Virus record (IMG/VR): IMGVR_UViG_3300005530_000069
Coordinates: 1 to 27,938 of that record
Strand: one strand, 5' to 3'
Source: a virus
DNA: 27,938 bases
How positions within the stretch are numbered: position 1 is the first letter of the stretch; each line of letters begins with the position of its first letter. The notes below the pieces were generated by a model, which had not been told where the DNA came from, did not search any database, and saw nothing but the letters and a program-made list of their open reading frames with translations. A program made the translations under genes and the position numbers. Shown here one piece after another: positions 1 through 22,632 of this stretch.

Positions 1-456
1 CCATGCATGCACCCCCTGTGCCAAGAGGACGCGCTTCGCAACGATGACCTGTTGCACGGGGGTAGCGTAGTCTGCCCGATTGGGGTAGCCCTGGGGTCGG
101 TACGCCAGCCAGGTGCCGGCGGTGAACTGCAACCCACCGTAGAACCCGTTGCCGGTGTTGATGTGCCAGTCTCCGGACGACTCGCACTCGGCCACGCGGT
201 ACCATACCTCGGCGATGGTGAACGTCTGGCGGACCAGTGAGCGGGTCGCACGCCGAGCTGCTGTACGACGGCGTGGCCGGACTCGATGCGAGCGGAGCTT
301 GGGAGGTGGTGGAGCGAACTGGTCGACCGTGCCTGCTGGGACGGGTGCAGGTTGCGAGACTGCGGACGGGGCATCTTGGGTGGTCGTAGCGACGTACGTA
401 CCTGCGGTCGCGACGCACGCTGTGGCGAGTACGCGGACCAGGTGGTTCCGGTGCAA
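1..456 (-). CDS. Secreted Rpf-like transglycosylase (partial, runs off left edge)
   Basis: Peptidoglycan-cleaving protein of the resuscitation-promoting-factor type. I start it at a TTG (456-454), which has AGGAG 6 nt upstream and lies just past the end of the helicase gene; no ATG in this frame fits. Residues 1-25 look like a signal peptide (HRNHLVRV then a hydrophobic stretch), followed by a Pro/Ala linker and a basic Arg-rich segment (about 55-72). The Rpf fold begins near residue 82: WYRVAECESSGDWHINTG, then FYGGLQFTAGTW. In this family the Glu after the Cys (E92 here) is the catalytic acid. The frame is open to base 1, so the C-terminus is missing. It is the last visible gene of the leftward unit starting near 3100. 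It could be a lysin, a virion muralysin or an exported host-modifying enzyme; the missing end prevents a choice. Confidence 0.85.
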   Translation of the reverse strand, partial: MHRNHLVRVLATACVATAGTYVATTTQDAPSAVSQPAPVPAGTVDQFAPPPPKLRSHRVRPRRRTAARRATRSLVRQTFTIAEVWYRVAECESSGDWHINTGNGFYGGLQFTAGTWLAYRPQGYPNRADYATPVQQVIVAKRVLLAQGVHAW

Positions 457-12002: not shown

Positions 12003-12112
12003 AAATTCCCCACGGTAAATTTACGCAGCGATCGGTTTTGCGGTGTGCACTTTATGTTGCCGCGACACGGATCCTCCCGTATTTTGGTTGGGGAATCCCG
12101 GAGTTACGTCAG
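12003..12112. repeat. Promoter-upstream module, copy C (most complete)
   Basis: Begins 12 nt beyond the -35 with AAATT-N10-AATTT (12003-12022), then ACGC-N2-CGATCGGT, the box TTTATGTTGCCGCG (12051-12064) 60 nt from the -35, and GATCCTCCCGTATTTT with GGGGAATCCCGG. It lies between the promoter and the end of the next gene, and matches the module at 3149-3260. Confidence 0.65.
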
Positions 12113-12391
12113 TGCTTCCCGCGGCGGTGCGGTTTTCACCCGGTAAGTGACGCGCTTCTCGCACAGAATGTCCCGGGTTCCCGGCTTCACGTGTGCCCTT
12201 CCCCGGTTGATCATGCCGTCGTGGTCGTCAAGGCAGATGACAAGTGCGTCGATTGCACCCTCGTGCAGGGTGAACTCGCGGATACCCTTGTCCTTGAGTC
12301 CCTCGGCTACTAACCACGCGTTGAACTCGTCCCACAACCCGAGGCGTGGGAGGTCGCGTAGGTACCTGTCGACGTCGATCCAGTGGCTCAT
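12104..12391 (-). CDS. Hypothetical protein
   Basis: 95 residues from an ATG at 12391 overlapping the upstream stop (ATGA). N-terminal helices (DVDRYLRDLPRLGLWDEFNA), then a beta-rich half ending in a basic tail (REALT). Acidic centre (LDDHDG). It is the last gene of the unit that begins with the WhiB gene. No family recognised. Confidence 0.7.
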   Translation of the reverse strand: MSHWIDVDRYLRDLPRLGLWDEFNAWLVAEGLKDKGIREFTLHEGAIDALVICLDDHDGMINRGRAHVKPGTRDILCEKRVTYRVKTAPPREALT

Positions 12392-12591
12392 GCGACCTTC
12401 CGGAGCACGGTGGCTACCCACTTGCCGTGAGGGCGGTTCCACCAGTAGTCCTCGACAGACCACTTGAGGACGGTGTCCCACGTGACCGTGTGTAGGTCCT
12501 GAGGCATGTTGACTGCTGTCCTCAACCCGATGCTCTTCGCCCACACGAGCGGTGAACTGAGGCGACGTTCTTCAGGGGTAGTGCGTGGCAC
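12388..12591 (-). CDS. Small basic hypothetical protein
   Basis: 67 residues from a GTG at 12591 overlapping the peptidase stop (TAGTG). A GTG at 12624 would add eleven residues with a 34-nt overlap; neither has a clear ribosome-binding site. The sequence is basic, with a Trp-rich stretch (WDTVLKWSVEDYWWNRPHGK). No motif recognised. Confidence 0.62.
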   Translation of the reverse strand: MPRTTPEERRLSSPLVWAKSIGLRTAVNMPQDLHTVTWDTVLKWSVEDYWWNRPHGKWVATVLRKVA

Positions 12592-13436
12592 TAGGCGCCT
12601 GGGGCCAGGATTGGCAACGTCCACACCGGATCGTTCGCCGGTGGGTGCTTCACGTCAGCTAGCGTGTACCCCATCGAGGTGAGGACGGACATGGACGGGA
12701 TGTGGTCCAGGTGACCACCTGTCCACGCGTAGATCGCCTTCTCGCCGGGCTTCTGGATCAGGACCATTTTGTCCTCCAACGGGATCGGATGGGGTGTGGG
12801 GTTCGGGATGGGTGTTGGCTTGGCTGGGAGAACGACGGTGTCGAAACCGTGGCCGTTGTACGAGTAGACGCTCCCGGTGAGCTTGAACGCGGCGATCCAC
12901 TCCCAGGACAGGATGGCCCGTCCCTGGCATCCCCACAGCAGGCCCCAGCTGTTCTGCACGATGAGCCCGAGGGGTGTGTACCCTACGCCGGTGATGTCGT
13001 GAGACTCGAGCGGTTGGTCACCGTCGATCGGGTAGACGACAGGCAGCGAGGACTGCATGTACTCGACACCGAGGAACGCCTTGCTGTACGCCGGAACGGT
13101 GAACTCGATCACCGCGTTCTCGATGAGTGCTTCCTTCAGCGCCTCGGGCGACTGGTCGGTCGAGGTTGCTCCGTGCTTGGACCAGTAGTCGCTCGGGGCG
13201 AACTCGAACCGGTACCGACTGCCAGCGACGATGCCGTCCATGTAGAACGCACTGCTCGTCGTGTCCCAGGTGACGTCTGTGCCCTGGTACGTCTGGATGA
13301 CACCATCCCAGACCCTGCGGTACGCACTGAGTAGTGTCGCACGCGTCTCCAGCACGCAGTCCGGGGTCTGTCGCTGGTTGAGCACGTCCAACGGCGCGTA
13401 GTGCTCGTTGAAGTCGTAGCTGTCGGGTAGGGTCAT
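12591..13436 (-). CDS. Papain-like (C1-type) cysteine peptidase
   Basis: 281 residues from an ATG at 13436 with GGAGA 5 nt upstream. The catalytic pattern of papain-family enzymes is visible: Q21 (oxyanion) six residues before C27 in NQRQTPDCVLETR, H146 in SHDITGVGY, and N162 in QNSWGLLWG, with the typical GL-V-NSWG context. The catalytic Cys lies only 27 residues from the start, so there is no pro-region and no signal peptide; it should fold active in the cytoplasm. After a Pro-rich linker (about 203-221) comes a 60-residue domain (MVLIQKPGEKAIYAW onward), perhaps for targeting. It sits directly downstream of the primase/helicase. It could process a phage protein or attack a host one; the substrate is unknown. 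Confidence 0.82.
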   Translation of the reverse strand: MTLPDSYDFNEHYAPLDVLNQRQTPDCVLETRATLLSAYRRVWDGVIQTYQGTDVTWDTTSSAFYMDGIVAGSRYRFEFAPSDYWSKHGATSTDQSPEALKEALIENAVIEFTVPAYSKAFLGVEYMQSSLPVVYPIDGDQPLESHDITGVGYTPLGLIVQNSWGLLWGCQGRAILSWEWIAAFKLTGSVYSYNGHGFDTVVLPAKPTPIPNPTPHPIPLEDKMVLIQKPGEKAIYAWTGGHLDHIPSMSVLTSMGYTLADVKHPPANDPVWTLPILAPGA

Positions 13437-13446
13437 TCCGGTCTCC

Positions 13447-15861
13447 TCACGTCACTCGGTCGAACACGTAGCGTACTGCGTCGGCACCTTTGCGAGTCAA
13501 GGCTATCCCTTCTGCGTCGAGGAACCGGTCGAGCTGACCGAGCTTGATGCTCAACCCACGGGGGCTGGGCACGCGTTTGCGGAACTCGTCCCCGCCAGGG
13601 AACACGCTGAGTTCCAGGTGCAGTTGGGCTGGGGTAACCTCCCGCCCACGGTTGGCAGCCTTCTCCAGCCACTGGAGGAGCACGTACATCATCGGGTCCT
13701 CCTCGATGGCCTCCTTGGCTTGGTTGCCCTTGACGAACCGCAGCAGCGGCTCCAGGTCGAACCCCTTCAACTGCGAGGTCACGCTCAGGAGGGCAGCGAA
13801 GTCTGCCTGGCGGAAGTTCCCCTCGAACCTGGGGATGCCGTGGTTACGGATCCACCGCAAGATGGCGTTGATGTCCTCGAGCAGCTCACCCCACAGCTCC
13901 CCACGCCGGTTCTGGATCCGCTCGGTGATCTCCCGTTCGTTGACCAGCTTCGCAGCGAATGGCTGGACACGGATGGGGATGACCCGCTCCGCAACGTCGT
14001 CACGCATGAACCGGGGCGTGCGCGCGGTGAGGCCGATGAAGCAGCTGACGGTGTACGTCATCACGATGTTGTCGGTGTACAGCTTCCGGCGGGTGAACGT
14101 GTAGCTGGTGCTGGTCATGGCCAGCTTGTCTGGCAGCCAGGGCTTCCAGGAGTCGACGTTGTCGTAGAACAGCAGGTCGTTGACCGCCACCTGCAGGTTG
14201 AACTCCTCGTCCTCCTGCGGCAGGTCGTGGGCACCCATATGCTTGCCCTGGAGCACCTGTGCAATCCCCTTGAACACCGACGTCTTGCCAGACCCCGCCT
14301 CCCCATGGAGGAACAGGATGGGTTTGACGGGCATCAGTTCGCGGAAGAACTGCGACAGGACCCACGTACGGATGATGTGGTGGATCTGTCTCGGCTGCAG
14401 CCCCTCGGTCACCAGGTTCGCACACGAGAACACGAGTTCCTCCCACGGTCGGGTGGTCTTCGGCGTCTCGTACTTCCAGGGCAGGGCTCCAGGCGGGTTG
14501 ACGAAGAAGATGCCGTCGTGACCGTTCTGCAGGAGGGTGACGTCCTTGCCGTCCAGGCGGTACATGTGGTTGTCGAAGCGGTTCACGTACACGGCGTTGT
14601 TCGCGATGTCGTAGTGGGCTGTCCGGTACACTTTCACAGGGGTGTCGTCCTGGCACCGGGACATGACGTGCTCGAACAGCTGGAGGTACTCCGCCCCGCC
14701 GGCGTTGATCGCGTACCGGTCCAGGAGCAGCTTGCGGAACGGAGGTGCGGTCTTGTCCACCTGGTGGAGACACGTCTCCTCCTGGTCGAGGTAGTAGTAC
14801 TCGACGGGGTTCTCCGTCTGCATGAACAGCCCGTGCTTGGCCATGTCGTCGGTCAACAGCTTGCCGAGCTTGTGCACCTTGTCGGCGTTGGTGCCCTTCT
14901 CCTGGCGGGTCGCTTGCATCATGTCGATGATGCCACGGTCTTTCTGTCCCGCCTCGGACTGGTTGTACCCGGAGAGGATGTCCCGCCACAGGGACTGTTC
15001 ACCGTTGTACCGCTGCTCTGCGAACTTGTCGTTCGGGGTACCCTTGATGAGGAGGAACGCCTCCTCCCGGCTGAACCCCAGGCGGTAACACTCGTGGTAC
15101 ATCCACCACAGGGCGCTGCTGCGGTCTGGTTGCTTCCGCTCGAGCATGGTCAACAGCTTGACGGTCATCTTCTCCCGCAGCTGGTTGAACACGTACTCTC
15201 GCGGCACATCTGACTGGGGTATCGCTGTGGCGTCGACATCCACGTCTAGCAACAGCTGTGGGTGGTCGGGTAGCTTCGCGAAGTCGTCCAGCGAGTACCG
15301 GCGGTCGGCATCCAGGTGGACCATCTTGACGATCCACGGCGGTGTGTGCTTCGCGTTGACACCCGCAGGCAGCCGGAGGAGCTGGTTCCCGTCCCACCCA
15401 GAGTGGTCGCTGCCGAACGAGTACGCTAGCCGCCGGTTGTGGTACTCGAGGTTGACCAGCGTGACTGGGTTGTCGAGGAGCCAGTAGCAGTGGAACCGAC
15501 CCTCGGACGTCTGCACGACCACGCTAGGCTGCGGGGCTAGGTCGTACGGGTTCACCTCGGTGTCGAAGTCGACCCACAGGCACCCGGACTCGAGGATCGC
15601 GTCCTTCTGTCGACCCTGCTTGCTCAGCAGCGCTGGGACGAGGTACCACTCCTGAGTCCAGTCCAACTCCCCCAGGTCCGGGGCTTGGCCATCCCGTACT
15701 GCGTAGTACGCGGTCCGCATGTTCTGCCAGTCGGACTCGTGCCCCTCCCTGCCCGTTGACGTCACCGGCACCTGAATCACCGCCAGGTACCCGTTGGAGG
15801 TTGCCTTGAAGAGGGCACTGAGGAACTGCTGGACGGCTAGGGCTTCGGGACTGGTTGCCAC
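13447..15861 (-). CDS. RepB-type primase / superfamily 3-like helicase
   Basis: 804 residues from a GTG at 15861, with AGGAG 10 nt upstream; the gap to the previous gene is 5 nt. N-terminal part (about 90-175): GCLWVDFDTEV, TSEGRFHCYWLLD and QLLRLPAGVN, the signature of RepB-like primase or prim-pol folds, with D98 and D100 as likely metal ligands. Middle linker of 150 residues. C-terminal ATPase (about 495-720): Walker A GEAGSGKT (520-527), Walker B LLFYDNVD (563-570), and ARTPRFMRDDVAERVIPI with a likely arginine finger. This is the replication initiator or helicase of the phage, making primers and unwinding the template. No DNA polymerase gene is in the window, so host polymerase may be used. 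Confidence 0.9.
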   Translation of the reverse strand: MATSPEALAVQQFLSALFKATSNGYLAVIQVPVTSTGREGHESDWQNMRTAYYAVRDGQAPDLGELDWTQEWYLVPALLSKQGRQKDAILESGCLWVDFDTEVNPYDLAPQPSVVVQTSEGRFHCYWLLDNPVTLVNLEYHNRRLAYSFGSDHSGWDGNQLLRLPAGVNAKHTPPWIVKMVHLDADRRYSLDDFAKLPDHPQLLLDVDVDATAIPQSDVPREYVFNQLREKMTVKLLTMLERKQPDRSSALWWMYHECYRLGFSREEAFLLIKGTPNDKFAEQRYNGEQSLWRDILSGYNQSEAGQKDRGIIDMMQATRQEKGTNADKVHKLGKLLTDDMAKHGLFMQTENPVEYYYLDQEETCLHQVDKTAPPFRKLLLDRYAINAGGAEYLQLFEHVMSRCQDDTPVKVYRTAHYDIANNAVYVNRFDNHMYRLDGKDVTLLQNGHDGIFFVNPPGALPWKYETPKTTRPWEELVFSCANLVTEGLQPRQIHHIIRTWVLSQFFRELMPVKPILFLHGEAGSGKTSVFKGIAQVLQGKHMGAHDLPQEDEEFNLQVAVNDLLFYDNVDSWKPWLPDKLAMTSTSYTFTRRKLYTDNIVMTYTVSCFIGLTARTPRFMRDDVAERVIPIRVQPFAAKLVNEREITERIQNRRGELWGELLEDINAILRWIRNHGIPRFEGNFRQADFAALLSVTSQLKGFDLEPLLRFVKGNQAKEAIEEDPMMYVLLQWLEKAANRGREVTPAQLHLELSVFPGGDEFRKRVPSPRGLSIKLGQLDRFLDAEGIALTRKGADAVRYVFDRVT

Positions 15862-15866
15862 CGGGG

Positions 15867-16166
15867 CTACGCTCCTGTGTACGTTCGGATTCGACGGATG
15901 AGATGCGGGTCTTCCTGGCGAAGGAGAGCACCATGGGTGTCGCAAAGGTCACTCATGGACTCCAGGGACTTGTACGACGCCTCGGCGACGTCAATGACAG
16001 TGTCCGGGAGCTCCCACACCACAGTCAAGCTGGCCACCCCTGTGCAACGTGCGAACCCGTCGTCACCTCCGATAGCCCACCAGCAACACCGGCCATCGGG
16101 CATGGGTGACCCAGGCATCAAGGTGCCATCCGGTTCGACTAGCCGCTGGTCACACAGCACGTTCAC
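15867..16166 (-). CDS. Cys-containing hypothetical protein
   Basis: 99 residues from a GTG at 16166 overlapping the previous stop (GTGA). The first third has CDQRLVEPDGTLMPGSP and CCWWAIGG, and later CTGVA and CDTH, spread Cys residues that could form one metal site. The C-terminus (LLRQEDPHLIRRIRTYTG) is basic and helical. It lies 5 nt before the primase/helicase. No family recognised. Confidence 0.72.
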   Translation of the reverse strand: MNVLCDQRLVEPDGTLMPGSPMPDGRCCWWAIGGDDGFARCTGVASLTVVWELPDTVIDVAEASYKSLESMSDLCDTHGALLRQEDPHLIRRIRTYTGA

Positions 16167-16722: not shown

Positions 16723-17075
16723 CACTTGTCCTCTAGGTCGCGGATGTCATCAGGTATGACCCCGGTGTGTTCGTTCCACCAGGCTGCCATGCGTTGCACT
16801 ACGTCTGCCTGCTCGTTGTCCACGTGCATGACCCGGACCTCACTGGGAGTGTCCTCGTCCAAGGTGCGGGTGTAGATGGTGACCTGGTGACCACCTTGCA
16901 CAGGGGCAGCGAACGTGATGGCCACGTTTACCGGGAAACCGCCGTCACCCTTCTCGTCAGCCTCGCGGAGGATCCGCATGGCAGCAGCCTGGGCTTTGAC
17001 CACCAGGGCCACGCGCAGCATGGCCATTCCCATCTCGTGGGCTGCCTTGTCCAGCGGTGACTCATCAGGGGGCAT
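16722..17075 (-). CDS. Hypothetical protein
   Basis: 117 residues from an ATG at 17075 with GGAGG 6 nt upstream, overlapping the WhiB-like gene by 11 nt. N-terminal long helix (KAAHEMGMAMLRVALVVKAQ), a beta-rich middle (VNVAITFAAPVQGGHQVTIY) and an acidic end. It resembles short alpha-beta phage proteins but no family is recognised. Second gene of the unit. Confidence 0.75.
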   Translation of the reverse strand: MPPDESPLDKAAHEMGMAMLRVALVVKAQAAAMRILREADEKGDGGFPVNVAITFAAPVQGGHQVTIYTRTLDEDTPSEVRVMHVDNEQADVVQRMAAWWNEHTGVIPDDIRDLEDK

Positions 17076-17442
17076 ACGGTTCCTCCAGGTCAGGCTGGGA
17101 CTTGTCCCAGTGGGTTAGGCGACGTCTGTACCGGGTCTGCTGTTCTCGATGCCGAGGGTCTTGTTCCAGGCGCAGGAGGTACGTCATCGAGTGATTCGCG
17201 GCCGAGCGCTCATCTTCATCGAAGCCACCCCAGATACCGTAGGCAATCCTCGCCTCGCAAGCTTCAGCCAGGCACGCTAGGCGGATGGGGCATGCCAGGC
17301 AAACAAGCTTGGCCTGCTCCCGTTCGAAGGTGTTCTTCGGTGCAAAGAACGCGTCTTGGTCCTCCAAGGGTAGCGCCACGCAGGCAGCATCTTGCCACTG
17401 CTCAACCCACGTGCTGAGAAGGTGTGTGCGGCTACCTCTCAC
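17065..17442 (-). CDS. WhiB-like [4Fe-4S] transcription regulator
   Basis: 125 residues from a GTG at 17442 with GGGGAG 7 nt upstream; a TTG at 17472 is excluded because it lies at the predicted transcription start. The four iron-sulfur cysteines are C21, C48, C51 and C57 (CLACPIRLAC), followed by GIWGG (69-73) and a basic C-terminal tail, as in WhiB proteins. These act with the host sigma factor at promoters and are restricted to actinobacteria and their phages. It is the first gene of the replication unit from the promoter at 17478-17507, so it could switch host or phage promoters early in infection. Confidence 0.92.
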   Translation of the reverse strand: MRGSRTHLLSTWVEQWQDAACVALPLEDQDAFFAPKNTFEREQAKLVCLACPIRLACLAEACEARIAYGIWGGFDEDERSAANHSMTYLLRLEQDPRHREQQTRYRRRLTHWDKSQPDLEEPYAP

Positions 17443-17477
17443 GCATTCGCTCCCCGTGTTTTTGCACCACAACGTCT

Positions 17478-17883: not shown

Positions 17884-18492
17884 ATGACCGAGAACGTTGC
17901 ACCCTCGACTGGTGACAGCGACCTGATGCCTGTGTCAGAGCGCTGTGTGATCAACGCCTCGCAAGCCATCCATCACCTTCGAAGCGGCCAAGACATTACC
18001 CCTCACGACCTGTCGTTCGAGAAGGGATCTCTCGATCACTGCGCCGTGGTAGATGTGGGTACGATCGTTGCGATCGTGAACACGTACCGCAAGGGGTTAT
18101 CTTCCGCCGGGGTGGCGGCACACATAGGTGTCGATCCTGCTACCCTAGGGGAGTGGCTGGCCTGGGGCCGGGAGCCGGGCCGGGAACCATACCACACGTT
18201 GGCTGTACTGGCGACCATGGCATTGCGATCCGTAGAGGGTAGAGCAGTCGATGCATGGACAGGTGCGTTCGACAAGGATTGGAGAGCAGCACAGCAGTGG
18301 TTGCAAGCACGGTTCCCTCAGGACTACGCTACAGGCCGGGTGCAGGTCGAGCATACCGGCGTGGTACAGCACCAGGTGTCACTGGAGCCCCTGACCCCTG
18401 CCGATGCCAGAGAGGTGGCGTCCATCCTGTCCACCGTTGGTGCACTTGACGAGGAACCGTTGGATGTCGAGGTGATCGACGATGACGGGTGA
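17884..18492 (+). CDS. terS: Terminase small subunit
   Basis: 202 residues. It recognises phage DNA for packaging and hands it to the large subunit. Residues 58-95 contain a helix-turn-helix (IVAIVNTYRKGLSSAGVAAH, then DPATLGEWLAWGRE). The segment DWRAAQQWLQARFPQDYA is typical of actinophage small terminases. The C-terminus is acidic and ends LDVEVIDDDG. It opens the rightward head module. The ATG has no ribosome-binding site; see the promoter entry. Assignment rests on the HTH, the WLQARFP pattern and position before the large subunit. Confidence 0.85.
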   Translation: MTENVAPSTGDSDLMPVSERCVINASQAIHHLRSGQDITPHDLSFEKGSLDHCAVVDVGTIVAIVNTYRKGLSSAGVAAHIGVDPATLGEWLAWGREPGREPYHTLAVLATMALRSVEGRAVDAWTGAFDKDWRAAQQWLQARFPQDYATGRVQVEHTGVVQHQVSLEPLTPADAREVASILSTVGALDEEPLDVEVIDDDG

Positions 18493-18856
18493 CCTGAGAG
18501 CGCACCCCGGCTGGTCGCCCACCCACGCGGCACGTGACCTCGCACCGGAAACGACGGGCACCTGGGGGGATCTGAGCACACCCGAGAACCAGACCAACAC
18601 CTGCCCGGAATGCCAGCACCCAGCGGGAGACCACACGCGGACGGGGATGCTAGCGTTCTGCCACCGCTACGGTTGCGGATGCATCCTCCCACAGACGGCC
18701 ACCGGGGTAGCATCCTCCGCCCTACCGATCCGGCGTCGCAGGAAGCGGCCTGTCATGCTGTCGCCGCTCGCTACCCCGGTGGTCTCACTTCCACCCTCAA
18801 CATCACCACGTCAGGCCTACACCAACCCCACACCGTCGAAGGAGCGCAGCGCATGA
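18482..18856 (+). CDS. Zinc-binding hypothetical protein
   Basis: 124 residues. The ATG at 18482 overlaps the end of the small terminase by 11 nt and has GAGGTG 7 nt upstream. Residues 41-68 contain CPECQHPAGDH and CHRYGCGC, a likely zinc site. The C-terminal half is Pro/Ser/Thr-rich and basic, probably disordered. Unusual between terminase subunits; function unknown. Confidence 0.7.
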   Translation: MTGDLRAHPGWSPTHAARDLAPETTGTWGDLSTPENQTNTCPECQHPAGDHTRTGMLAFCHRYGCGCILPQTATGVASSALPIRRRRKRPVMLSPLATPVVSLPPSTSPRQAYTNPTPSKERSA

Positions 18857-19017
18857 CCATGCCCGACGAACCCATGCCCGCAGAGACAACGACCAGCACC
18901 CCTGTGTTCAGCACTCCGACGATGAGCAACGACGAAACGCCGGACATGGACGGGGACGCGGACGACAACCTGCCGTTCGAGGGTGAACGGACCATTAGCC
19001 TGCCGTCAGCGCCGTAA
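18853..19017 (+). CDS. Small acidic disordered protein
   Basis: 54 residues from an ATG at 18853 overlapping the previous stop (ATGA), with GGAG 8 nt upstream. Rich in Met, Pro, Thr, Asp and Glu (MPDEPMPAETTTSTP, then DETPDMDGDADDN). Its stop overlaps the next start (TAATG). Likely unstructured; no function assigned. Confidence 0.62.
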   Translation: MTMPDEPMPAETTTSTPVFSTPTMSNDETPDMDGDADDNLPFEGERTISLPSAP

Positions 19018-19460
19018 TGGGCGAGCTGGCCTCAACCCTCTTGGAGCTCCCGCAAGCCTCACCACAAGACGCGGAGGAGCACTACGTGGGTCGCACTCAC
19101 GCTGATGCCGGGCGCACGTTGCCGCCTGAGGGAACGATGTGCGAATGCGTGGCCAACCACAACCCGCTGGTGCGCCCGGAGTCATTGCAGCCTTGGCCGC
19201 TGATTGGCGGACCGCTCTTGTGGGTGTGCCCCATCACGTTCATGAACACCCTGCTGCTCTTGGACGAGTACGAGGAGGAGCACGGCATGCCCCCGAGGGC
19301 AGTTACGTCCAAGTACAGCCTGTACACGCGGCAACTGGCGCAGGCTACCTGGCGCACGCTGGGCAGGCCGCCGAAGACCGTCCCGTTTGAGGACCTGTTC
19401 ACCATGCCGCTCCCATCACCGAAGCGGCATTCAAGGCGGACTCCTGGAGGCACACCCTGA
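19017..19460 (+). CDS. Degenerate HNH-like protein
   Basis: 147 residues from an ATG at 19017 (TAATG overlap). Residues 42-80 (CECVANHNPLVRPESLQPW, then LLWVCPITFMNTLLLLDEYE) follow the layout of actinophage HNH endonucleases that read HHxxPLxxGG...WVCPTTHxNxHxLL, and the following KYSLYTRQLAQATWR matches their helix. The catalytic His pair and the downstream His are replaced (NHN; FMN; L). So the fold may survive without nuclease activity. HNH proteins often support terminase; here that role may be structural. Assignment is tentative. Confidence 0.5.
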   Translation: MGELASTLLELPQASPQDAEEHYVGRTHADAGRTLPPEGTMCECVANHNPLVRPESLQPWPLIGGPLLWVCPITFMNTLLLLDEYEEEHGMPPRAVTSKYSLYTRQLAQATWRTLGRPPKTVPFEDLFTMPLPSPKRHSRRTPGGTP

Positions 19461-19825
19461 TGTCCACGTCTCCCTACTCCATCGACGACATCGCACAGGT
19501 GTGTCACGAGGCCAACCGCGCGCTCCAGCACGTGCAGAACGACCCCACGATTCCAGTGTCACCGCCGTGGGCCGAGGTCGATGAGGAGACACGGGAGTCA
19601 GCGCGGGCGGGCGTGGAGAATGCCCTGGCGGGTGCAACCCCGGAGCAGTCGCACGAGGCGTGGTTACAGTTCAAGCTCGCCAATGGTTGGCAGCTGGGTC
19701 CGGTCAAGGACGAGGGTCTGAAGCAGCACCCGCTGCTGGTCCCGTACCACGCCCTGCCGGAGTCACAACAGGTCAAGGACGAGCTGTTCACCTCGATCGT
19801 GCGCATTTTGGGTAGTGCGCCTTGA
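19460..19825 (+). CDS. RyR-domain protein
   Basis: 121 residues from an ATG at 19460 overlapping the previous stop (TGATG). It matches the ryanodine-receptor-type RyR repeat almost end to end: IDDIAQVCHEANRALQ, then PPWAEVDEETRESARAGVEN, then WLQFKLANGWQLGPVKDEGL, then HPLLVPYHALPESQQVKDEL. Such free-standing RyR proteins occur in phages and bacteria; their role is not well known, with nucleotide binding a common suggestion. It lies immediately before the large terminase, whose TTG overlaps its stop. Confidence 0.85.
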   Translation: MSTSPYSIDDIAQVCHEANRALQHVQNDPTIPVSPPWAEVDEETRESARAGVENALAGATPEQSHEAWLQFKLANGWQLGPVKDEGLKQHPLLVPYHALPESQQVKDELFTSIVRILGSAP

Positions 19826-21144
19826 GCGAGACCATCGAGCAGGAGATTGAGCGCCTTCGGCAGCTCATGACGCCACGCCTGACCAAGTACATCCCTAGCA
19901 AGCCCACTCCGAAGCAGGCAGCGTTCCTGCTACTGCCCCACCGTGAGGCGTTCTACGGCGGTGCCGCAGGCGGTGGCAAGTCCGAAGCCCTCCTCATGGG
20001 CGCCCTGCAGTACGTGGACCAGCCGGACTTCCACGCGCTACTCCTCCGGCGGACGTACTCCGACTTGTCCCTACCGGGAGCGCTCATGGACCGTGCGGAG
20101 TCATGGCTCCGGGGTACTGACGCGCGCTGGGTGGACAAGGACAAGACGTGGAAGTTCCCGAGCGGTGCAAGCCTGACCTTCGGGTACCTGGAGCACGAGG
20201 GCGACAAGTACCGGTACCAGTCCTCCGAGTTCCAGTACATCGGGTTCGACGAGCTGACGCAGTTCACCGAGACCATGTACACGTACCTCTTCAGCCGCCT
20301 GCGCCGGAAGTCGGAGAACGGCGTGCCTGGCCGCATGCGTGGTGCAGCGAACCCGGGTGGGCAAGGGCACCAGTGGGTGCACAACCGGTTCCTGGTCGAG
20401 GGACGCAAGAAGGGTCGCATCTTCGTCCCTGCGGGGTTGGTCGACAACCCACACCTCCAGCGCGAGGAGTACGAAGAGAACCTGCAGGAGCTCGACCCGG
20501 TCACGCGTGCACAGCTGCTCCACGGTGACTGGAACATCCGCGAGCAGGGGAACCTGTTCAAGCGTCAGTGGTTCAAGCTCGTGGACGAGCTCCCGAGGGG
20601 TGCAAAGCGTCTCCGGCTGGTCCGGTACTGGGACCTCGCTGCCACGGAGGAGAAGAAGGGCGAGGACCCTGACTACACCGCAGGCGTGAAGTTCAGCCTG
20701 TGCGAGGACGGGAACTACTACGTCGAGGACGTTGTCCGGTTCCGAGGCACCCCGGCAAAGAACGAGCAGGTGGTGCGCCTCACAGCCCTCCAGGACGGCA
20801 AGACGCTGTGTTCCATCTGGATGGAGCAGGAACCGGGCAGCGCAGGCGTGAACAACATCGACAACTACCGCCGCCACGTTCTCCGAGGGTGTGTCTTCCG
20901 TGGCGACAAGCCCACCGGTTCGAAGGTAGACCGTAGCCGCCCTGTGAGCGCCGCAGCGGAGAACCGCCTCATCCGAGTTGTCAAGGCGCCCTGGAACGAC
21001 GCGTTCTTCGACGAGCTCGAAGCATTCCCAACGGACGGGGCACACAAGGACCAGGTGGATGCCCTCAGCGGAGCGTTCAGCAAGGTCGCGAAGCGGTCGC
21101 GCTTCTACGACGGTGTCCGCCGCAACGTCAACATCTGGTCGTAA
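19822..21144 (+). CDS. terL: Terminase large subunit
   Basis: 440 residues from a TTG at 19822 that overlaps the RyR stop (TTGA). It drives DNA into the procapsid and cuts it. N-terminal ATPase: Walker A GGAAGGGKS (46-54), Walker B ending IGFDE (D143, E144), then the FTETMYTYLFSRLR helix and the ANPGG segment. C-terminal RNase H-like nuclease begins at about 265 with RYWDLAAT (D271) and has later acidic residues near HKDQVDALSG. Both domains look intact. Confidence 0.95.
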   Translation: MSETIEQEIERLRQLMTPRLTKYIPSKPTPKQAAFLLLPHREAFYGGAAGGGKSEALLMGALQYVDQPDFHALLLRRTYSDLSLPGALMDRAESWLRGTDARWVDKDKTWKFPSGASLTFGYLEHEGDKYRYQSSEFQYIGFDELTQFTETMYTYLFSRLRRKSENGVPGRMRGAANPGGQGHQWVHNRFLVEGRKKGRIFVPAGLVDNPHLQREEYEENLQELDPVTRAQLLHGDWNIREQGNLFKRQWFKLVDELPRGAKRLRLVRYWDLAATEEKKGEDPDYTAGVKFSLCEDGNYYVEDVVRFRGTPAKNEQVVRLTALQDGKTLCSIWMEQEPGSAGVNNIDNYRRHVLRGCVFRGDKPTGSKVDRSRPVSAAAENRLIRVVKAPWNDAFFDELEAFPTDGAHKDQVDALSGAFSKVAKRSRFYDGVRRNVNIWS

Positions 21145-21153
21145 GGAGCCCTC

Positions 21154-22632
21154 ATGCCCGTCGATACCCAGTACGCCATCTCCGAGACCCTGTTCCAGGA
21201 GAACATCGAGCAGGACCACTACCGGTCCCTCCAGTTCGCGAAGGCCTGGGAGGCGTACGAGGGGAGACTCCCGAAGCCCCTGAAGGTGGAGGGAGCGTTC
21301 GACGACAACGTGCGCATCAACCCTGCACAGGGGGTTGTGGACGCTGGTGTGTCGTTCCTGTTCGGCGACGAGCAGGGCATCCAGTGGACGTACCAAGGCG
21401 ACGATCCGACCAACCCTGAGGCAGCACCGTCTTGGTTGACTGCCCTGCGGCAGGCGTGGAAGGCCAACAAGCAGGACACGCTGCTCATGGGCGTCGGCAT
21501 CAACGGCGGCGTGTGCGGGCACGTGTTCATCAAGCTCCTGCCACGCGGCGCAGGTCGAGACGGGTCGTTCCCGCAGCTGGTGAACCTCGACCCAGGCAAC
21601 GTGCACGTGGACTGGAACCCGAACGATTGCACCCAAGCGTGGCGGTACACCATCACGTACACGACCGTGGACGAGACCGCTGAGCCGAAGCGCGCCCTGG
21701 CACGCCAGCAGGTGATCGACTCCGTCCGGGACGCGAACGACGTGATCCAGTCGTGGACCATCACCACGAACGAGCAGGACTTGACCGCCGGAGCACAGTC
21801 CCCGTGGCTACAGGTGGGCCCCACTGTGAAGTGGGACTACCGCTGGCCGCCGATCGCGGACTGCCAGAACCTCGTGGTGCCGAACCAGTACTGGGGCATG
21901 GCAGACCTTGAGGAACCCGTCGTCGACGTGATCTCGTCCCTCCAGTTCATGCTCAGCAACCTCAACAAGATCATCCGCATCCACGCCAACCCGAAGACGC
22001 ACGCGAAGGGTCTTACGCCGGACCTCGTGTCCGAGATCCAGATCAGCCCGGACGGCGTCATCGCGTTGCCAGACCCGGAGGCAGAGCTCAAGAACCTCGA
22101 GATGCACTCCGACCTGTCTGCAGCACAGGGCGTGTACAACGGTGTACGAGCAGCGTTCGACGAGATGACCCAGACGCCGGAGATCGTGCGTGGGCAGACC
22201 AACGCTGCGAGTTCCCAGCTGAGCGGTGTCAACCTGTCGATCCTGTTCGCACCGCTGCTCAAGCGGACTGCCAAGAAGCGCCGCACGTACGGCGACATGC
22301 TCCTCGAGTTGAGCTTGCGCATCCTGGAGCTGATGAGCGAGGACTTCATGGAGGCGGAGAACCTGCTGCAGATCCAGTGGCCTGACGTCATGCCCGGCAG
22401 CGCGTTCCTGCAGCGGCAGTCGCTCCTGGTGGACAAGCAACTCGGTGCGAGCACCGACACGCTGCTCGCGAAGCTCGGGTACGACCCAGCGACGGAGAAG
22501 GGCAACAACATGGCCGACATGGAGTCCCTCGGCCAGCTCCAGGCGAACAACGTAGGCACGAACATGAACCGCAACCCAGCCGGCGCAGGCCAAGGATTGG
22601 GGACGGAAGGTGCAGCCACTCAGACCTCTTGA
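21154..22632 (+). CDS. Portal protein
   Basis: 492 residues from an ATG at 21154 with AAGGAG 6 nt upstream. The portal ring occupies one capsid vertex and is the docking site for terminase. The order after terminase and before the MuF gene, the length and the SPP1-type character (opening HYRSLQFAKAWEAYEGRL, then DNVRINPAQGVVDAGVSFLF, a middle helix ISSLQFMLSNLNKIIRIHAN) support this. The C-terminus has a Gly/Asn-rich tail. Confidence 0.9.
   Translation: MPVDTQYAISETLFQENIEQDHYRSLQFAKAWEAYEGRLPKPLKVEGAFDDNVRINPAQGVVDAGVSFLFGDEQGIQWTYQGDDPTNPEAAPSWLTALRQAWKANKQDTLLMGVGINGGVCGHVFIKLLPRGAGRDGSFPQLVNLDPGNVHVDWNPNDCTQAWRYTITYTTVDETAEPKRALARQQVIDSVRDANDVIQSWTITTNEQDLTAGAQSPWLQVGPTVKWDYRWPPIADCQNLVVPNQYWGMADLEEPVVDVISSLQFMLSNLNKIIRIHANPKTHAKGLTPDLVSEIQISPDGVIALPDPEAELKNLEMHSDLSAAQGVYNGVRAAFDEMTQTPEIVRGQTNAASSQLSGVNLSILFAPLLKRTAKKRRTYGDMLLELSLRILELMSEDFMEAENLLQIQWPDVMPGSAFLQRQSLLVDKQLGASTDTLLAKLGYDPATEKGNNMADMESLGQLQANNVGTNMNRNPAGAGQGLGTEGAATQTS

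What the first reader, a model, noticed from the sequence alone, without database searches (positions are those of the whole stretch)
12591..13436. Papain-like cysteine peptidase in the replication unit of a phage
Q21, C27, H146 and N162 in papain-like contexts are visible, with no pro-region or signal peptide and an added C-terminal domain after a Pro-rich linker. C1-type peptidases are not a standard part of phage replication modules; head-maturation proteases are usually of other classes and lie in the structural module. A cytoplasmic, early-expressed enzyme could process a phage replication protein or disable a host defence.
Basis: partly seen in the sequence, partly recalled or inferred. 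Interest (0 to 1): 0.72.

Follow-up and report, generated by a model that had tools for sequence, protein, structure and literature searches.

The report
Divergent papain-like peptidase of an actinophage
An uncultured phage, probably of an actinobacterium, carries a strongly diverged papain-type protein-cutting enzyme joined to a small domain that may bind cell walls; relatives in other phages often sit beside, or are fused to, the enzymes that burst the host cell, so it is more likely a displaced lysis or envelope enzyme than a replication protein.

Summary
Q21, C27, H146 and N162 are where stated, coding is real, and the predicted fold is papain's (Z 14.5 to cathepsin B; Foldseek's best hit is xylellain). 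There is no pro-region and no evident signal peptide. A Pro-rich linker leads to a ~60-residue C-terminal domain.

The novelty claim is weaker. Phage C1A peptidases are known: annotated 'cysteine protease' in cultured actinophages, PHROG 16701, and reported as xylellain-type acquisitions by Caudoviricetes. I collected about 80 non-redundant viral copies. In Gordonia, Arthrobacter and Thermoanaerobacterium phages they lie inside or beside the lysis cassette. Three uncultured copies are fused to Amidase_2 (next to a holin), to PG_binding_1 plus a sub-threshold NlpC/P60 match, or to an S-layer domain. The window's C-terminal domain, modelled at low confidence, best resembles cell-wall-binding PlyCB and EccB repeats.

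Best reading: an accessory, envelope-directed lysis peptidase that moved into the primase operon (about 0.45). Rival: an early cytoplasmic host-takeover protease (about 0.3). The nearest relative phage lacks the gene, so it is accessory. The protein is an outlier in the tree; its substrate and timing are untested.

The parts
12591..13436 (-). Papain-like (C1A-type) cysteine peptidase gene, 281 aa, stop codon included
12822..13436 (-). Catalytic domain, residues 1-205; Q21 (13374-13376), C27 (13356-13358), H146 (12999-13001), N162 (12951-12953)
   Evidence: residues 46-91 are modelled poorly
12771..12821 (-). Pro-rich linker, residues 206-222 (KPTPIPNPTPHPIPLED)
   Evidence: sequence
12594..12770 (-). 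C-terminal domain, residues 223-281; putative envelope-binding module
   Evidence: no sequence match; low-confidence model closest to EccB1 and PlyCB, Z 3.5-3.8
13443..13446 (-). Shine-Dalgarno GGAG of the peptidase gene
   Evidence: sequence
13447..15945 (-). Primase gene (RepB_primase N-terminal domain, probable ATPase/helicase part), directly upstream in the same direction; context, not part of the enzyme
12388..12591 (-). Gene of 67 aa whose GTG start overlaps the peptidase stop codon (TAGTG); no known family
   Evidence: sequence
12104..12391 (-). Gene of 95 aa overlapping the previous one (ATGA); no known family
   Evidence: sequence

Best explanation
The gene encodes a papain-type (C1A, xylellain-like) cysteine endopeptidase of a phage of an actinobacterium, with the module order of a phage lysin: catalytic domain, Pro-rich linker, small putative envelope-binding domain. 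Inferred mechanism: it is made in the cytoplasm without a pro-region or signal peptide, crosses the membrane through the holin lesion like a typical endolysin, is held at the envelope by its C-terminal domain, and cleaves protein or peptide components of the cell envelope by Cys-His-Asn catalysis, helping the main peptidoglycan hydrolases. It is an accessory gene that has landed in the primase operon rather than in the lysis cassette. Shown here: the gene, the residues, the papain fold, the linker, and the lysis association of relatives. Inferred: activity, export, envelope binding, substrate, timing.
For: Papain fold and conserved catalytic residues. Relatives in lysis cassettes: Gordonia Aleemily, GMA2 (annotated 'putative lysin'), Sixama and Lilbeanie, between split lysin A genes and the holin; Arthrobacter Mufasa8 after lysin A; Streptomyces ZL12 two genes before an Amidase_2 gene; THSA-485A directly after a GH25 endolysin. 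Fusions: L184 C1 + Amidase_2 with a Phage_holin_4_1 gene upstream, L182 C1 + PG_binding_1 (+ sub-threshold NlpC/P60), L042 C1 + SLH. The window's C-terminal domain model has EccB1 and PlyCB as its ten best rows; EccB1 repeats and the wall-binding PlyCB were independently reported as similar. A C1 peptidase of jumbo phage XacN1 is listed among potential lytic enzymes (PMC5852040).
Against: In this window the gene follows the primase, with no holin or endolysin beside it, and probably is transcribed with early genes. The protein is an outlier (branch 3.88) outside the actinophage clade, so kinship says little about it. The C-terminal match is weak (Z under 4, pLDDT 58). In Mycobacterium phages, Shady, Sycamore and BillNye the gene is not in the lysis cassette, and neighbours in uncultured phages are diverse. 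C1 enzymes cut proteins, and no envelope substrate has been shown.
Confidence: 0.45

Rival explanations
1. A cytoplasmic host-takeover or counter-defence protease: expressed with the replication genes, it cleaves a host protein (defence effector, regulator, or proteins recycled for amino acids), with the C-terminal domain as substrate or partner adaptor.
For: Place directly behind the primase with 10 nt spacing and overlapping downstream genes; no signal peptide; gene absent from the nearest relative, as expected of accessory genes; in Saguaro and Indlovu the C1 gene lies in the right arm among regulators and a HicA-like toxin gene.
Against: Lysis-cassette location and fusion to wall-hydrolase modules in many relatives; endolysins also lack signal peptides; no host target is suggested by any result.
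Confidence: 0.3
2. The papain fold is kept but peptidase activity is lost or changed (binding protein, amidase or transferase).
For: Very long branch; Pfam score below cut-off; QGxxxxC has become QRQTPDC and GGH has become ESH; residues 46-91 are not modelled.
Against: Gln, Cys, His, Asn and the Trp after Asn are all kept.
Confidence: 0.14
3. It processes a phage replication protein such as the adjacent primase.
For: Adjacency to the primase gene.
Against: The relative with a 61% identical primase has no C1 gene; the phage C1 family is not associated with primases in the contexts read.
Confidence: 0.06
4. Head-maturation or other virion-assembly protease.
For: Phage-encoded protease; in BillNye and some uncultured phages the C1 gene lies next to the terminase gene.
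Against: Known head-maturation proteases are of other folds (general knowledge); the head genes of this phage, including a Mu F-like gene, are on the opposite strand.
Confidence: 0.05

Closest known systems
Phage C1A 'cysteine protease' family (PHROG 16701; Gordonia Aleemily gp29, Sixama gp109, GMA2 Orf38; Arthrobacter Mufasa8 gp26; Streptomyces Sycamore; Mycobacterium Saguaro gp69)
   Same: Papain fold with Gln, Cys, His, Asn; no pro-region; C1 domain ends in a similar motif
   Different: The window protein has a linker and a further domain, lies behind a primase, scores only 15.1 bits to PHROG 16701 and falls outside the actinophage clade
Xylellain (PDB 3ois), short bacterial C1A peptidase
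   Same: Best Foldseek hit; short bacterial type reported as acquired by Caudoviricetes (PMC10380794)
   Different: No counterpart of the C-terminal domain was identified; 19% identity over the aligned part
Thermoanaerobacterium phage THSA-485A C1 peptidase, Tsac_2838
   Same: C1 domain, Pro-rich linker, short C-terminal segment
   Different: Lies directly after a GH25 endolysin with a similar C-terminal motif; different C-terminal sequence
C1 + Amidase_2 protein of L184 and C1 + PG_binding_1 protein of L182
   Same: C1 domain joined to another module in one phage protein
   Different: These carry recognised wall-hydrolase or wall-binding domains; the window protein carries an unrecognised one
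PlyCB of the PlyC lysin and EccB repeat domains
   Same: Best structural rows for the C-terminal domain model
   Different: Z only 3.5-3.8, no sequence match, low-confidence model
N5 (C39-like) domain of mycobacteriophage lysin A
   Same: Papain-superfamily cysteine peptidase domain in phage lysis enzymes (PMC3314691)
   Different: Another family (C39-like): OneUp gp43 has a YTCGP active-site motif, not the C1 pattern

Membership tests
Papain family C1A (Pfam PF00112) | Catalytic Cys, His, Asn and oxyanion Gln in order | tested here: met
   Q21, C27, H146, N162 invariant with 44 viral relatives; aligned with papain at H159 and N175
Papain family C1A (Pfam PF00112) | Papain two-domain fold | tested here: met
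   Z 14.5 over 153 residues spanning 1-197; residues 46-91 poorly modelled
Papain family C1A (Pfam PF00112) | Catalytic residues brought together in space | not testable with these tools
Papain family C1A (Pfam PF00112) | Score above Pfam's gathering cut-off (a detection threshold, not a biological feature) | tested here: not met
   15.5 against 20.7 bits; profiles of phage members recognise it
Papain family C1A (Pfam PF00112) | Thiol-dependent proteolysis | not testable with these tools
   Needs an assay with a C27 variant
Phage endolysin or lysis protein | Gene in a lysis cassette | tested here: not met
   Lies behind the primase; no holin or endolysin beside it; met by several relatives
Phage endolysin or lysis protein | Cell-wall-binding domain | tested here: inconclusive
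   Weak structural resemblance of a low-confidence model to PlyCB and EccB
Phage endolysin or lysis protein | Cleaves cell-wall peptide or envelope protein | not testable with these tools
   Needs an assay on host envelopes
Head-maturation protease | Gene in the head module | tested here: not met
   Head genes are at 19.8-27.7 kb on the other strand

The most novel reading that the evidence does not exclude
Papain-type endopeptidases form a proteolytic arm of phage lysis: holin-released C1A enzymes, targeted by their own wall-binding domains, strip envelope proteins beside the peptidoglycan hydrolases. The window enzyme would be a divergent form with a PlyCB-like targeting domain, made from the primase operon.
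Probability: 0.3. Interest if true: 0.6.

Novelty: new variant of a known kind. Interest (0 to 1): 0.4.

Why it matters
Phage papain-type peptidases are widespread but, as far as the paper searches here showed, no function has been reported. The fusions found here (C1 + Amidase_2 beside a holin, C1 + PG_binding_1, C1 + SLH) make a testable proposal: that phages use true proteases on the envelope at lysis. The window protein adds an odd case, with an unrecognised C-terminal domain and a place in the primase operon, which can help separate the lysis reading from an early host-takeover reading by expression timing.

Tried and rejected
Close relatives by the protein's own peptides in viral contigs, by tblastn in phages (one weak hit that opened the family) and NCBIfam: nothing close. 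Relatives of the C-terminal domain in Pfam, PHROGs, PDB sequences, phages, viral contigs, 296 actinobacterial genomes and all fetched loci: nothing; the one viral-contig hit (L202) is a chance 12-residue match. Pfam's EccB model in 12 actinophages: nothing. OneUp 'endolysin' gp43, a BFVD hit, was rejected as a C1 member: its sequence has the YTCGP-type active site of C39-like domains. Bacterial hits from genome contigs have other architectures and did not help placement. Terminase relatives gave one 3.4-kb near-copy of the window's terminase end and no second copy of the C1 gene. A neighbour tally over 119 proteins showed no dominant partner, so 'always next to a lysis gene' was rejected. Head-maturation protease was rejected on context. 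BFVD hits of the C-terminal model are not significant and serve only as a hint.

Full report
What was checked. The finding places a papain-like peptidase at 12591-13436. The plus strand there has several stops; the reverse strand is one open frame of 281 codons from ATG, with a GGAG ribosome site at 13446-13443 and the primase stop codon 10 nt upstream of the start. Base composition by codon position (0.58, 0.45, 0.85) is like that of the primase (0.63, 0.39, 0.86), and of six frames only this one scores as coding against the phage's own codon usage. The gene is real.

Is it a papain relative? Q21, C27, H146, N162 and W164 are present. Pfam's Peptidase_C1 stays below its cut-off (15.5 against 20.7 bits) and PDB sequence hits are marginal, but they align H146 and N162 with papain's H159 and N175. 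A profile built from viral C1 proteins scores the protein 61 bits, the best of 1000 shuffles 3. Most of those proteins had been selected by similarity to the query, so I built a second profile only from cultured-phage proteins not selected that way: 19.5 bits against 8.2 for the best of 2000 shuffles. With 45 viral sequences aligned, Q21, C27, H146 and N162 are invariant. The AlphaFold2 model from that alignment is confident for 1-43, about 91-117 and 140-185, and it matches papain-family structures over 1-197 with Z up to 14.5; the best Foldseek hit is xylellain.

The rest of the protein. The catalytic domain ends with DTVVLP, where actinophage C1 proteins end with forms such as GDVTVP. A linker KPTPIPNPTPHPIPLED and about 60 further residues follow. 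The extension has no sequence match in any library tried. Modelled alone it is poor (mean pLDDT 58) but gives three strands and a helix. Among 752 solved chains compared, the ten best rows are all EccB1 (Z up to 3.8) and PlyCB (Z up to 3.6, 51-52 residues aligned); other folds stay at 2.7 or less. A paper reports independently that an EccB1 repeat resembles PlyCB, which ties the PlyC lysin to the cell wall (PMC4769845). BFVD's top rows for the same model include several amidases and lysins, none significant. I take this as a weak hint of an envelope-binding module and no more.

Surroundings. The record is a 27.9-kb fragment. Its minus-strand arm runs from a WhiB gene (17065-17472) and a MazG-like gene past the primase, the peptidase and two small genes with overlapping start and stop codons down to a helicase gene and, cut by the contig end, a Transglycosylas (Rpf-like) gene at 1-456. 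WhiB, the Transglycosylas domain and terminase similarity to Gordonia phages point to an actinobacterial host. The closest phage found, L140, has a 61% identical primase; its 60-kb record has no C1 gene. The peptidase is thus an accessory gene in this lineage.

Relatives. One weak phage hit opened a large family. Viral-contig scans gave about 80 non-redundant C1 peptidase loci, and 51 phage records match the Streptomyces phage Shady protein, many annotated 'cysteine protease' or 'peptidase'. A published survey already states that xylellain-type C1A peptidases were acquired by Caudoviricetes (PMC10380794). The kind is known; I found no report of its function.

What relatives suggest. In four inspected Gordonia phages (Aleemily, GMA2, Sixama, Lilbeanie) the gene lies behind the split lysin A genes and directly before the holin; the small gene just before it in Aleemily matches the C-terminal part of endolysins. 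In Arthrobacter phage Mufasa8 it is three genes after lysin A, in Streptomyces phage ZL12 two genes before an Amidase_2 gene, in Thermoanaerobacterium phage THSA-485A directly after a GH25 endolysin with a similar C-terminal motif. L184 fuses C1 to Amidase_2 and has a Phage_holin_4_1 gene directly upstream; L182 joins C1, PG_binding_1 and a sub-threshold NlpC/P60 match; L042 joins C1 and SLH. Against this, Mycobacterium phages Saguaro and Indlovu carry the gene in the right arm, Shady and Sycamore in a tRNA array, BillNye behind the terminase, and a tally of 119 neighbours in uncultured phages shows no dominant partner. The gene is mobile, with lysis as its clearest recurrent association.

Placing the window protein. 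In a tree of 99 proteins the eleven actinophage sequences form one group (100/100) and the window protein is outside it on a branch of 3.9 changes per site, with no supported neighbours. Function by kinship is therefore weak, and loss or change of activity cannot be excluded, although all catalytic positions are kept.

Conclusion. A divergent C1A-type peptidase with an added, possibly wall-binding domain. Envelope-directed lysis helper: about 0.45. Early cytoplasmic host-takeover or counter-defence protease: about 0.3. Altered or lost activity: 0.14. Replication-protein processing or virion assembly: about 0.1 together. Expression timing, wall binding of the C-terminal domain and a C27 variant would decide.

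Noticed in passing
L008, L009, L011, L014, L016, L019, L027, L030, L031, L037, L041, L045, L054 (also L002 7258-7581, L010, L015, L021, L038): A conserved pair, probably in phages of Bacteroidota: a small lipoprotein gene (about 105-156 aa, lipobox Cys, often a DYE-type motif) directly upstream of the C1 peptidase gene; 16 of 80 non-redundant loci by a simple rule. It could be an inhibitor or an anchor.
   Followed up: partly
L184 7197-9020; L182 7388-8917; L042 1918-2787: C1 peptidase domains fused to Amidase_2 (with a holin gene directly upstream), to PG_binding_1 plus a sub-threshold NlpC/P60 match, and to an SLH domain.
   Followed up: partly
L006 7023-8777: In THSA-485A the GH25 endolysin and the following C1 peptidase end in a similar Pro/Gln-rich linker and short motif, as if sharing a targeting tail.
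   Followed up: no
L025, L028, L036, L051, L058: C1 peptidases with a C-terminal hydrophobic segment, some after a Pro-rich stretch: possible membrane-anchored forms.
   Followed up: no
window 1-456, minus strand: A Transglycosylas (PF06737, Rpf-like) domain behind a signal-peptide-like start, cut off by the contig end.
   Followed up: partly
L203: A 3.4-kb viral contig from another sample is 99.97% identical to window 17903-21308.
   Followed up: no
L003 5929-6555, L004 5932-6558: Prevotella Lak phages carry a C1 peptidase gene that is open only when TAG is read as an amino acid; it lies just after a portal-like gene.
   Followed up: no
L035 7254-9566; L061, L063, L064, L070: A C1 domain followed by a long region with a GHSAG motif (hydrolase-like) in one viral contig and several bacterial genomes.
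   Followed up: no
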